In this document: one piece after another, positions 55,359 through 58,542 of the stretch | Layout: every line of letters starts with the position of its first letter | How positions within the stretch are numbered: the stretch's first letter is position 1 | NCBI RefSeq assembly: GCF_011044495.1 | Contig: NZ_CP049143.1 | Span: 2,356,001 to 2,420,000 of the forward strand | Length of the DNA: 64,000 bases | Source of the DNA: Roseimicrobium sp. ORNL1 | GTDB lineage: Bacteria; Verrucomicrobiota; Verrucomicrobiia; Verrucomicrobiales; Verrucomicrobiaceae | Direction: 5' to 3' | Notes under the pieces: model-generated | Databases searched by the model: none | Told to the model about the DNA's origin: nothing | What the model saw: the letters and a program-made list of their open reading frames with translations, nothing else | Made by a program: the position numbers and the translations under genes

Positions 55359-55613
55359 TTACTTCACCTTGGAGAGGTACTTCGCCGGATTGGCGTCGAA
55401 CTTCTTGATGCAGGGCTTGCAGCAGAACTTCACTTCCTGGCCGTCATGGGTCTTGGTGATGACCTTGCCCATGCTGCCAAGTTCGTTGCCGCTCACGACG
55501 CAGGTCTTCTGCGTGTAAGGCTTCGCAGCGGAGGCTGTGGTGGGCAGGCTGGTCGCGGCCAGGGCAACGCCGAGGAGAACGGTGGAAAGGAGGGCGGTGA
55601 GTTTTGTTTTCAT
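55359..55613 (-). CDS. Secreted YHS/TRASH-like metal-binding protein, 84 residues
   Basis: A signal peptide (LLSTVLLGVALAATSLPTTA) is followed by QKTCVVSGNELGSMGKVITK, then THDGQEVKFCCKPCIKKFDA and NPAKYLSKV. The C..SG..L......V...G..V.FCC..C...F...P..YL pattern is that of the YHS/TRASH-like metal-binding domain, proposed for copper/heavy-metal handling. It is downstream of the CopA-CopB fusion on the same strand with the only strong terminator of the locus after it. Confidence 0.85.
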   Translation of the reverse strand: MKTKLTALLSTVLLGVALAATSLPTTASAAKPYTQKTCVVSGNELGSMGKVITKTHDGQEVKFCCKPCIKKFDANPAKYLSKVK

Positions 55614-55754: not shown

Positions 55755-58007
55755 TCAAAATCTGACTTCCAGGCCCGCGCCGAGGCCGTAGTCGGAGTGA
55801 TATTGGGTGATGAGCGAAGCGGTGCGTGTGAGCGTGTAGGTCGCTCCGGCGGACCACTTCCACTCGGTGTTGGTGTCGTACTCCACCTGGCCGAAAGCAG
55901 CGAGGCGTGGGGTGAGCTGGAACTCCTTCGCCAGGGCGAAGCGGGCGTCGCCTTCGCTGTCGAGGCTGATGGTGGCCCAGGCGAGCAGGGGCAGGCGGTA
56001 GTTGAAGCCGATGACACCTCGGTTCTCTGCGTCGTCTTCATTGGTGAGGCGTGCGCCGATGAAGGCCTGGAAGTCCGCGCTGAAGTAGCGCTGGTAGAGC
56101 GCCTCCACTTCGTACTCGGTGTCGTCCACATTCGCCCAGCCGACCTCCCAGCCCAGCAGGATGTCGTTCTTGGGATTCATCCAGGTGATGAGGCCCTCCG
56201 TCATGTGGGACTGGATGGAGGCCGCGCCCCAGATGTAAGACATATCATGGCTGTGCTCGCCGAGGCCGCCCATGGCCATGCTGCCGCCGTGGCGATGGGC
56301 ACTGGCACCAAGGGCACGGCCAAGGCTTGCACCCAGGCCAATGCCAAGACCATCACCATGGTCACCGGAGGCGATGCTGCTCTGCGCAGCATCACCCGCA
56401 TTGCCAGCAGCGGCCACCTCGGTATTCGCTGAAGGATGGTCCGCGTACTTCGGCATCGCGCCATCCTCCGGCGCGTAGCGGAACACGCGGGCCATGCCGG
56501 ACATCATGTGATAGAGGATGTGGCAGTGGAACATCCAGTCGTGCGTTTCGTTCGCCTCGAACTCGACGGTGCGCGTGCTCATGGGCGGCACGTCCACGGT
56601 GTGCTTCAGTGGGGAGCGTTTTCCCTGGCCCATGAGCAGGCGGAAGAAGTGGCCGTGCAGGTGGATGGGATGGTGCATCATGGTGTCATTCACCAGTTCC
56701 AGCTCGATGATTTCACCCTTCTTGATGTGAATGTAGGGGTCCTGGGCGATGGTCTTGCCATTGAAGCCCCAGATGTAGCGGTTCATGTCGCCTGTCAGCT
56801 TGAGCGAGATCTTCCGGCGCGGCAGGTTCTTCGGCAGCGTGGTGCTGCCGGGTGACTTCAGCAGGCGGTAGGGCGAGCCGGGGCGGGGGAGGTTGAGCGA
56901 AGCGCGCGGGTCATCCTCCTTCTCTTCCAGGGAAAGGTTCAGCATCTCATCCATGGAGTACACATTCGCCTTGGGTGGATCCTCAGCAGGAGTCAGGGGG
57001 CCACTGCCGAAGAAGGCAGACATGTGCCCGCTGCCATCCTGCGCCGTGGCGCGCAGCTCGAACTGGCCGCTCGCTGGCACGGTGACAATCACATCATACG
57101 TCTCCGCGATGGCCATGAGGAAACGGTCCACCTTCACCGGCTCCACAGCGGGACCGTCCGCTGCCACGATGGTCATGGGACCGGCCGAAGACGTGAGGAA
57201 GAAGTAGGATGCGGCGGAGGCATTGATGATGCGCAGGCGGATGCGTTCCCCCGGCTTGCCTCCGAGATCCACCGTGCGCTTGCCATTGATGAGAAAGGCA
57301 TCGTACCCCACATCGGAGAGATCCATGGGAGGCATCTTGGCCCACTGGTTGGAGAGGTATTCCTTGAAGTGACTTGCCTTGATGGCGCCGAGGATGGACT
57401 GGGCATTGCCACGCTTCAGTCCGAAGTAGTCGCTGCCACGCATGAGCATGCGCATGACTTCGTGCGGGTCGATGTTTGTCCAGTCGGAGAGCACCAGGAC
57501 CTCCTCGCGGTCCGCCTTCACCGGTTCACCGCCACGTGGCAGGACCACGATGGAGCCGTACACACCTATCTGCTCCTGCAGGTGCGTGTGCGAGTGGTAC
57601 CAGTAGGTGCCGGAGTGCTTGAGCTGGAACTCAAACGTGTGCGATTTCCCCGGGAGGATGGGTGGGGTGGTGATGTAGGGCACGCCGTCTTGCACATTTG
57701 GCAGGAGCAGGCCGTGCCAGTGCGTGGAGGTCTCCTCGTTCTTCAGGCGGTTGTGCACATGGATGCGCGCCCACTCGCCCTCGCGGAAGCGCAGCGTGGG
57801 GCCGGGGATGCCGCCATTGATGGTGAGCCCGCGCACGTGTTTGCCGGCGGGGCTGACGGTTTGTTCGTCGATGTAGAGATCGTACTCCACGACCTTCGCG
57901 CCGGGAGGAGCCTTGAGCTTGCACTCGTCGCAGGCCATCGCGGCCAGCGGGTGCAGCAGTGCCAGCGTGGCGAGGGCACGGAAGAGGGAGGTGAGGGGGA
58001 GGTGCAT
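55755..58007 (-). CDS. CopA-CopB fusion: multicopper oxidase with C-terminal CopB-like beta-barrel domain
   Basis: A 750-residue protein. A Sec-type signal peptide ends around Ala25. Copper-ligand motifs of a CopA-type multicopper oxidase are HWHG (96-99), HSHTH (138-142), HPIHLHGH (446-453) and HCHILYHMMSGM (494-505, with the type 1 axial Met). After a His/Met/Gly linker (511-590), residues about 590-750 read AASIQSHMTEGLITWMNPKN, GWEVGWANVDDTEYEVEALY and ending GLGAGLEVRF, the pattern of CopB outer-membrane copper-resistance proteins. CopA and CopB are normally separate genes. Unlike most CopA proteins it lacks a twin-arginine signal. Role: periplasmic copper oxidation and binding. Confidence 0.88.
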   Translation of the reverse strand: MHLPLTSLFRALATLALLHPLAAMACDECKLKAPPGAKVVEYDLYIDEQTVSPAGKHVRGLTINGGIPGPTLRFREGEWARIHVHNRLKNEETSTHWHGLLLPNVQDGVPYITTPPILPGKSHTFEFQLKHSGTYWYHSHTHLQEQIGVYGSIVVLPRGGEPVKADREEVLVLSDWTNIDPHEVMRMLMRGSDYFGLKRGNAQSILGAIKASHFKEYLSNQWAKMPPMDLSDVGYDAFLINGKRTVDLGGKPGERIRLRIINASAASYFFLTSSAGPMTIVAADGPAVEPVKVDRFLMAIAETYDVIVTVPASGQFELRATAQDGSGHMSAFFGSGPLTPAEDPPKANVYSMDEMLNLSLEEKEDDPRASLNLPRPGSPYRLLKSPGSTTLPKNLPRRKISLKLTGDMNRYIWGFNGKTIAQDPYIHIKKGEIIELELVNDTMMHHPIHLHGHFFRLLMGQGKRSPLKHTVDVPPMSTRTVEFEANETHDWMFHCHILYHMMSGMARVFRYAPEDGAMPKYADHPSANTEVAAAGNAGDAAQSSIASGDHGDGLGIGLGASLGRALGASAHRHGGSMAMGGLGEHSHDMSYIWGAASIQSHMTEGLITWMNPKNDILLGWEVGWANVDDTEYEVEALYQRYFSADFQAFIGARLTNEDDAENRGVIGFNYRLPLLAWATISLDSEGDARFALAKEFQLTPRLAAFGQVEYDTNTEWKWSAGATYTLTRTASLITQYHSDYGLGAGLEVRF

Positions 58008-58140: not shown

Positions 58141-58542
58141 TCAGATCAGAATGGCGCAGAAAAGGACCGGTAGCCGGACATGCGGCGTGGCCTGTTCTGA
58201 CGCGTCAGTCAGGGTAAAATGCGACTGCTGCTCGCTGAGAGGAGCGGCGGGCTGGGGGACTGCTTCCTGGGACTTCCAGTAGACCACGGGAATGACATCA
58301 CGCGTGGACTGGGAGGGAATAGTGGGGAGCTCAGTCGGTTGCTGCTGCTCGGAGGTGGGAGCGCAGGCGCAGGTGTTGGCAGCTTCCTGTTGGTCCTGTT
58401 CCTGGACCGATGCGCAGCAGTCCATCGTGCATGATGGCGCGTGTTTCGCTGTCGTCATCGTCATCGCGCGCAGTCCCACCGCGCCAGGCAGTGCCTGGAG
58501 CAGGACAGCGAAGATGAGGACGATGGAACGGAAGTGACGCAT
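58141..58542 (-). CDS. Secreted cysteine-rich protein of the copper locus, 133 residues
   Basis: MRHFRSIVLIFAVLLQALPG, then AVGLRAMTMTTAKHAPSCTM and DCCASVQ...NTCACAP, forms a signal peptide plus a Cys/His/Met-rich stretch. The remainder is Gln/Pro/Ser-rich with a hydrophobic end (PHVRLPVLFCAILI). It is the first gene upstream of the CopA-CopB fusion, on the same strand, 133 bases away. This layout (short, Cys-rich, MTMT) resembles small periplasmic copper-associated proteins. Function inferred from context. Confidence 0.6.
   Translation of the reverse strand: MRHFRSIVLIFAVLLQALPGAVGLRAMTMTTAKHAPSCTMDCCASVQEQDQQEAANTCACAPTSEQQQPTELPTIPSQSTRDVIPVVYWKSQEAVPQPAAPLSEQQSHFTLTDASEQATPHVRLPVLFCAILI

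What the first reader, a model, noticed from the sequence alone, without database searches (positions are those of the whole stretch)
55755..58007. CopA and CopB fused into one 750-residue protein
A CopA-type multicopper oxidase with all four ligand motifs runs through a His/Met/Gly-rich linker directly into a CopB-like outer-membrane segment ending in GLEVRF. In known cop systems these are two genes, one periplasmic and one outer-membrane. A fusion would tether the oxidase to the outer membrane. The lack of a twin-arginine signal is a second departure, since CopA is usually exported folded.
Basis: partly seen in the sequence, partly recalled or inferred. Interest (0 to 1): 0.7.

Follow-up and report, generated by a model that had tools for sequence, protein, structure and literature searches.

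The report
Fused copper oxidase and outer-membrane barrel
One gene encodes a copper-oxidising enzyme joined to a barrel of the outer membrane, parts that textbook copper-resistance systems make from two genes; the joined form turns out to be an old family in many bacterial phyla that is barely mentioned in print.

Summary
The minus-strand gene at 55755-58007 (750 aa, unbroken, in a one-contig 7.96 Mb genome) joins a CopA/PcoA-type multicopper oxidase, with all 12 copper ligands, through a disordered His-bearing linker to a C-terminal barrel. AlphaFold2 gives the barrel 12 strands at high confidence; its best match among solved structures is PcoB (7PGE). The barrel misses Pfam's CopB cut-off, but its profile picks out true CopB proteins in whole genomes. 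The fusion is no local accident: 79 of 80 named loci fetched with the barrel carry oxidase in the same frame (one is cut by a contig end), in nine phyla by record name, and Bacteroidota and Fusobacteriota plasmids have it too. In an oxidase tree, 57 fused and 15 unfused proteins lie on two sides of one branch. Of 34 Verrucomicrobiota genomes with a related oxidase (288 searched), 27 have the fused form, 7 an unfused one, none both. No Tat motif was found in 70 fused proteins, as expected if the barrel must be exported unfolded. Likely function: periplasmic copper detoxification by an oxidase tethered at the inner mouth of its own outer-membrane channel. One 2024 paper mentions such a protein in one sentence; my searches found no survey. 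New variant of a known kind.

The parts
55755..58007 (-). fused CopA-CopB protein, 750 aa plus stop codon
   Evidence: translation; relatives
57933..58007 (-). probable Sec-type signal peptide, residues 1-25, no twin arginine; the mature end would begin C26-D-E-C
   Evidence: read from the sequence, no signal-peptide program was run; helix 5-25 in the model
57534..57869 (-). multicopper oxidase domain 1 (PF07732, residues 47-158; HWHG and HSH motifs)
   Evidence: ligands invariant
57036..57500 (-). multicopper oxidase domain 2 (PF00394, residues 170-324)
56466..56822 (-). multicopper oxidase domain 3 (PF07731, residues 396-514; HPIHLHGH and HCHILYHMMSGM)
56247..56465 (-). linker, residues 515-587, Ala/Gly-rich with His; pLDDT below 50 at 520-578
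   Evidence: dN/dS 0.243 against a congener (517-585)
55758..56246 (-). 12-stranded outer-membrane barrel domain, residues 588-750, CopB/PcoB-like
55359..55613 (-). downstream gene for a small, apparently exported Cys-rich protein (84 aa) resembling YHS/TRASH metal-binding domains; probable partner
   Evidence: Pfam matches below cut-off; a homologue follows the fusion within 700 bp in 30 of 36 Verrucomicrobiota loci with enough flank
58141..58542 (-). upstream gene for a small Cys/His-bearing protein; possible partner
   Evidence: homologues in 9 of 37 Verrucomicrobiota named loci; no Pfam match

Best explanation
A single-polypeptide version of the CopA-CopB (PcoA-PcoB) copper-resistance pair. 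SHOWN by sequence: an oxidase with complete copper sites and a C-terminal barrel-type domain in one frame, conserved across phyla and under purifying selection. SUPPORTED by prediction: the C-terminal domain is a 12-stranded, PcoB-like outer-membrane barrel. INFERRED: the chain crosses the inner membrane unfolded through Sec, the barrel is inserted by the BAM machinery, and with 12 strands both barrel ends face the periplasm, so the oxidase folds and loads copper in the periplasm, held at the inner mouth of the channel. There it oxidises Cu(I) to Cu(II), and the metal passes over the His-bearing linker into the channel and out of the cell. The linker stands where split CopB proteins carry their disordered His/Met-rich N-terminal region, which in Caulobacter is needed for copper efflux and for PcoA stability (PMC12509749).
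For: Oxidase domains and ligands. Barrel: model pLDDT 90.0 with 12 strands; best Foldseek match PcoB 7PGE at 3.4e-6, about ten times better than the next; rank 1 in VIA-align, Z 16.3; hhalign with six split Verrucomicrobiota CopB 92.6% (no unrelated barrel family was run as a control). Reverse search: in 200 genomes of the phylum of a Methylococcaceae genome the fused-barrel profile matched 12: the centre itself (known fused), one further fused protein, ten weak; of the 8 weak ones examined 7 are CopB at 247-304 Pfam bits beside an oxidase. Architecture: 79 of 80 loci fused, 1 cut by the contig end. One branch parts 57 fused from 15 unfused oxidases, SH-aLRT 100. Fused or unfused, never both, in 34 of 288 genomes. 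No Tat motif in 70 fused proteins; present in the three unfused PcoA/CopA whose starts were read. Heavy-metal P-type ATPase genes in 5 of 9 plasmid contexts fetched, DUF305 or four-helix copper-binding proteins in 5 of 9.
Against: No experiment on any fused protein was found. The window's barrel misses the CopB cut-off, and only 10 of 63 fused barrels match CopB at E 0.01. VIA-align ties PcoB with VhGalP (15.5) and OMPLA (15.4). One of the 8 weak reverse hits examined is another barrel. The window oxidase misses the TIGR01480 cut-off (404.5 against 478.95) and lacks the Met-rich loop (2 Met in 35 residues). In 18 loci outside Verrucomicrobiota the neighbour families shown (25 of 134) are mixed rather than clearly copper genes. 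In the window's genome the HMA copper-domain family gave two matches, in frames of 137 and 287 aa only, so no copper ATPase with that domain was seen. Transport direction is disputed for split PcoB: uptake (PMC9210255) against efflux (PMC12509749). Several carriers belong by name to groups of anaerobes, where an O2-using oxidase is not an obvious need.
Confidence: 0.62

Rival explanations
1. Copper acquisition: the barrel lets Cu(II) in and the oxidase handles or stores it in the periplasm.
For: PcoB was reported to facilitate cellular copper uptake and to have an electronegative funnel open to the outside (PMC9210255, passages). The fused barrel has acidic and His residues at turns that topology would put outside: NVDDTE, NEDDAEN, DSEGD, HSDYG (sequence; strands; orientation inferred).
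Against: Five of nine plasmid contexts fetched have a heavy-metal P-type ATPase gene close by; Caulobacter PcoB works in efflux (PMC12509749).
Confidence: 0.15
2. Metal redox enzyme at the cell surface: oxidase plus porin move electrons across the outer membrane, as proposed for PcoAB-like pairs in iron oxidisers.
For: Such a role was proposed from bioinformatics for a porin with a periplasmic multicopper oxidase (PMC5566968, passages). Fused proteins occur in contigs named Nitrospina, Geobacter, Desulfuromonas and Methylococcales.
Against: Among the 25 neighbour families shown of 134, a cytochrome family matches 2 of 138 neighbours; plasmid contexts point to copper.
Confidence: 0.1
3. Anchor only: the barrel holds the oxidase at the outer membrane and conducts nothing.
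For: The barrel domain (163-169 residues) is shorter than the PcoB chain solved (198 in 7PGE), with short turns.
Against: Polar residues are kept across 71 sequences: D711, H737, S738 invariant, E633, D683, R689 at 90% or more; dN/dS 0.042 for the barrel. A plain anchor would not obviously need them.
Confidence: 0.12
4. Artefact: a missed stop or frameshift joins two genes.
For: None found.
Against: One-contig genome, the same frame in a congener, and 70 other named loci with oxidase and barrel in one frame of 640 codons or more.
Confidence: 0.01

Closest known systems
PcoA-PcoB / CopA-CopB (split copper-resistance pair)
   Same: Same two domains in the same order; the barrel gene follows an oxidase frame on the same strand in all 6 Verrucomicrobiota loci found with a CopB over the cut-off and in Sphingomonas; same 12-strand barrel class.
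   Different: One chain instead of two; no Tat signal; barrel shorter and below the CopB cut-off; oxidases on the other side of one tree branch.
Bizionia argentinensis multicopper oxidase G2EDV6 (PMC11213822, passages read)
   Same: Described in one sentence as oxidase domains at 200-610 and a porin-like C-terminus at 611-809 with some similarity to PcoB: the same architecture, noted before.
   Different: One Bacteroidota protein, treated there as a periplasmic oxidase; no survey, fold comparison or tree in the passages read. Its sequence was not compared here.
Geobacter OmpB/OmpC outer-membrane multicopper proteins (PMC5566968, passages read)
   Same: Multicopper oxidases assigned to the outer membrane.
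   Different: OmpB is described with a fibronectin domain and a MofA relative, not with a CopB barrel; sequences were not fetched, so kinship of the Geobacter locus L133 to OmpC was not tested.

Membership tests
CopA/PcoA copper-resistance oxidase | three cupredoxin domains with all four copper motifs | tested here: met
CopA/PcoA copper-resistance oxidase | score over the TIGR01480 cut-off (478.95) | tested here: not met
   404.5 bits, though the best-scoring model in NCBIfam
CopA/PcoA copper-resistance oxidase | twin-arginine (Tat) signal | tested here: not met
   none in the window or in 70 fused proteins, by motif and with starts chosen by script
CopA/PcoA copper-resistance oxidase | Met-rich loop between oxidase domains 2 and 3 (recalled as a CopA trait) | tested here: not met
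   2 Met in 35 residues in the window; 8 or more Met in 35 of 71 fused rows
CopB/PcoB (PF05275) | score over the Pfam cut-off (27) | tested here: not met
   14.6 and 18.4 bits for the window; one fused relative, L026, reaches 30.4
CopB/PcoB (PF05275) | 12-stranded outer-membrane barrel like 7PGE | tested here: met
   models. A prediction, and tied with other barrels
CopB/PcoB (PF05275) | disordered His/Met-bearing stretch before the barrel | tested here: met
   residues 520-578 have pLDDT below 50, with 4 His and 1 Met in 59. Many other fused proteins have only 16-22 residues here
CopA-CopB system | two separate genes | tested here: not met
   one frame, one copy, no CopB match in the window's genome
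CopA-CopB system | confers copper resistance | not testable with these tools
   needs a deletion strain
Geobacter OmpB/OmpC | sequence kinship to OmpB (GSU1394) or OmpC (GSU2657, number recalled) | not tested
   sequences not fetched

The most novel reading that the evidence does not exclude
The fused protein is a self-contained oxidase-coupled copper channel: the oxidase sits on the periplasmic mouth in a fixed pose and feeds oxidised copper directly into the lumen, so that oxidation and passage across the outer membrane are one coupled step. Support: all 35 of 71 aligned fused proteins with a Met-rich oxidase loop keep a linker of 17-18 residues, and a pTM of 0.86 with 59 residues under pLDDT 50 is, by my estimate, too high for freely tumbling domains. 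In the window's own lineage the Met-rich loop is lost and a longer His-bearing linker has appeared, as if the copper-collecting part had moved to the channel side.
Probability: 0.3. Interest if true: 0.72.

Novelty: new variant of a known kind. Interest (0 to 1): 0.5.

Why it matters
How PcoA and PcoB work together, and which way PcoB moves copper, is open in the papers seen (PMC9210255, PMC12509749). A large natural family in which the two are one chain is strong evidence that they work side by side, and gives a single protein for structure and transport work. It also means that plasmid annotation files this protein as a plain multicopper oxidase, hiding its barrel, and that CopB censuses with PF05275 miss most of the family.

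Tried and rejected
Assembly or frameshift artefact: rejected.

Search of PDB sequences with the first barrel profile: one match, a designed 12-strand barrel; 7PGE was reached by fold. A later profile scored E. coli PcoB 1.1e-4 and Sphingomonas CopB 6.7e-4, CopA 0.7, in a set of 11 sequences.

Neighbour survey by Pfam in 18 loci outside Verrucomicrobiota, 138 of 142 ORFs picked: 25 of 134 families are shown; commonest are histidine kinase (6) and sigma-54 regulator (4) domains; heavy-metal-binding, YHS and DUF2231 domains in 2 each. Not used as support.

Copper ATPase in the window's genome: HMA family, two matches in frames of 137 and 287 aa; not followed up.

Geobacter OmpC as the same protein: a lead from memory, not tested.

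Lipoprotein reading of the N-terminus (A-C26 fits a loose lipobox, recalled): not pursued. A C-[DN]-x-C recurs there in 18 of 70 named fused proteins, all from records named as Verrucomicrobiota, so a metal-binding CxxC is equally possible.

Paper searches. Only PMC11213822 (passages) was seen to mention a fusion. Passages were read in PMC9210255, PMC5566968 and PMC12509749 (of this also abstract and discussion); of the other papers only listings were seen, so an unnoticed mention is possible.

Selection bias: the 80 loci were found with a pattern from fused barrels and capped at 80 of 98, so they cannot show split CopB; some searches were run to meet that. Left out: 10 of 80 named loci from the alignment and signal counts (contig ends or broken frames). 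The tree used 37 of the 70 others. Of the 15 unfused rows 13 were seen beside a CopB; the Raoultella record ends behind pcoA, and L029 was not checked.

Full report
THE OBJECT. The minus strand carries one unbroken frame of 750 codons from ATG 58007 to the stop at 55755. Pfam gives three multicopper-oxidase domains between residues 47 and 514 and a weak CopB match at 630-713. NCBIfam's best model is copper_res_A (TIGR01480) at 404.5 bits, under its cut-off of 478.95. The 12 copper ligands (H96, H98, H138, H140, H446, H449, H451, H494, C495, H496, H500, M505) are invariant in 71 aligned fused proteins. The genome is one contig of 7.96 Mb, 99.8% complete; the protein search finds one place in it, and the CopB family search none.

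THE BARREL. AlphaFold2 on 63 aligned barrel domains gives 12 strands, pLDDT 90.0. The full-length model has pLDDT 87.9 and pTM 0.86; its only segment under pLDDT 50 is 520-578. Foldseek ranks PcoB (7PGE) first at 3.4e-6, the next at 4.0e-5. VIA-align ranks it first, Z 16.3 over 161 residues, but VhGalP (15.5) and OMPLA (15.4) are ties. PcoB is itself a 12-strand barrel reminiscent of OMPLA (PMC9210255, passages). By sequence the link is weak: hhalign with six split Verrucomicrobiota CopB gives 92.6%, 24% identity over 116 columns (no control family was run), and 10 of 63 fused barrels match PF05275 at E 0.01. The reverse test is stronger. In 200 genomes of the phylum of a Methylococcaceae genome (Pseudomonadota by its record name), the barrel profile matched 12: two strongly, in frames of 688 and 704 aa, one of them being the centre, which was known to be fused; and ten weakly. 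Of eight weak ones examined, seven are CopB (247-304 bits) beside an oxidase frame and one is another barrel.

NOT A LOCAL ACCIDENT. A scan of named genomes with the barrel confirmed 98 stretches and kept 80 loci. In 79 the same frame holds oxidase sequence: 70 in frames of 640 codons or more with both oxidase motifs searched for, 9 cut by contig ends or broken frames; one (L122) is cut at the contig end and cannot tell. By record name they are 37 Verrucomicrobiota, 10 Thermodesulfobacteriota, 8 Pseudomonadota, 5 Nitrospinota, 4 Acidobacteriota, 2 Kiritimatiellota, 1 each Fidelibacterota, Planctomycetota and Nitrospirota; 10 are called only 'Deltaproteobacteria' (8 of them filed under Myxococcota by that name, which I do not trust) and 1 only 'bacterium'. 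Most are metagenome bins, so single cases may be binning errors. Annotated plasmids add Bacteroidota (Spirosoma, Hymenobacter, Bernardetia, Flavobacterium, Ornithobacterium, Mucilaginibacter, Pontibacter) and Fusobacteriota (Ilyobacter). All eight have the barrel by profile, and all are annotated as multicopper oxidases only. In the window's phylum the barrel profile matches 32 of 387 genomes.

FUSED AGAINST SPLIT. The named loci were fetched by the fused barrel, so I searched 288 Verrucomicrobiota genomes with the oxidase part alone. 34 have a match at 1e-40: 27 with 47% identity or more, all with the fused barrel (two have broken frames, G162 and G312), and 7 with 38-43% in frames of 598-694 aa. 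Six of the seven are genomes where (6 of 240 genomes over the cut-off) found a separate CopB; the seventh, G301, is not among those listed. At these thresholds no genome has both forms. In all six the CopB follows an oxidase frame on the same strand. A tree of 57 fused and 15 unfused oxidases needs one change, on a branch with SH-aLRT 100 (quick method); shuffled labels need 14 on average. Most unfused rows are partial, the root is unknown, and the direction (fusion or fission) is open. Rows L052, L053 and L055 (same order as the window, small genomes) fall beside Flavobacterium, which suggests transfer.

TWO FORMS. Between residues 511 and 588 the 35 rows with 8 or more Met in the loop between oxidase domains 2 and 3 all have 17-18 residues. 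The 29 rows with 4 or fewer Met (all but 4 of them Verrucomicrobiota, the window among them) have 16 to 76; 7 rows lie between. The longer linkers bear His. The Spearman value of -0.53 ignores kinship. My reading: the copper-collecting part moved from the oxidase loop to the linker in the window's lineage; seven rows with few Met and a short linker do not fit that.

EXPORT. No S/T-R-R-x-hydrophobic motif occurs at the start of 70 fused proteins (starts chosen by script, a few without an ATG), whereas the PcoA of Raoultella and E. coli and the CopA of Sphingomonas begin with a twin arginine. A barrel must reach the outer membrane unfolded through Sec and BAM (established knowledge), so a fused protein could not use the folded-export route; loss of Tat and fusion would go together.

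SELECTION. Against its congener (93% identity) dN/dS is 0.056 for the oxidase, 0.243 for the linker and 0.042 for the barrel: both domains are kept.

MECHANISM. Caulobacter PcoB needs its disordered His/Met-rich N-terminal stretch for copper efflux, and that stretch stabilises PcoA, which led the authors to suggest docking and Cu(II) transfer (PMC12509749, abstract, discussion and passages). In the fusion the linker takes that place. E. coli PcoB was instead read as an uptake channel (PMC9210255, passages). I favour oxidation followed by efflux, with the oxidase held at the periplasmic mouth; direction and coupling are inferred. The pTM of 0.86 hints at a fixed pose, an estimate of mine, since coordinates and PAE were not available.

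SURROUNDINGS. A small Cys-rich protein (55359-55613; YHS and TRASH matches under cut-off) follows the fusion in 30 of 36 Verrucomicrobiota loci with enough flank and in 0 of 41 others. Of nine plasmid contexts fetched, five have a heavy-metal P-type ATPase gene and five a DUF305 or four-helix copper-binding gene close by. Neighbours in 18 other loci are mixed.

PRIOR NOTICE. PMC11213822 says in one sentence that a Bizionia oxidase has a porin-like C-terminus similar to PcoB. I saw no other mention (open-licence papers only). Hence a new variant of a known kind, noted once, here shown to be a family.

Noticed in passing
window 55359-55613, minus: Small Cys-rich protein resembling YHS/TRASH domains; a homologue lies within 700 bp downstream of the fusion in 30 of 36 Verrucomicrobiota loci and in 0 of 41 others; possible copper chaperone.
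   Followed up: partly
window 58141-58542, minus: Small Cys/His-bearing protein upstream, without Pfam match, with homologues in 9 of 37 Verrucomicrobiota named loci.
   Followed up: partly
window 57921-57932, minus (residues 26-29): The mature protein would begin C-D-E-C; a C-[DN]-x-C at this place occurs in 18 of 70 named fused proteins. CxxC metal site or lipobox.
   Followed up: partly
L052, L053, L055: Fused oxidases of small-genome relatives of the same order group with Flavobacterium and Ornithobacterium plasmid copies in the tree, suggesting horizontal transfer.
   Followed up: no
L149, L154, L155, L158: The fusion sits on Bacteroidota plasmids, three of these four typed mobilizable and three with a P-type ATPase gene close by.
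   Followed up: no
L136: The fusion lies in an open frame of 2077 codons in a bin named Proteobacteria; whether the upstream part is coding was not examined.
   Followed up: no
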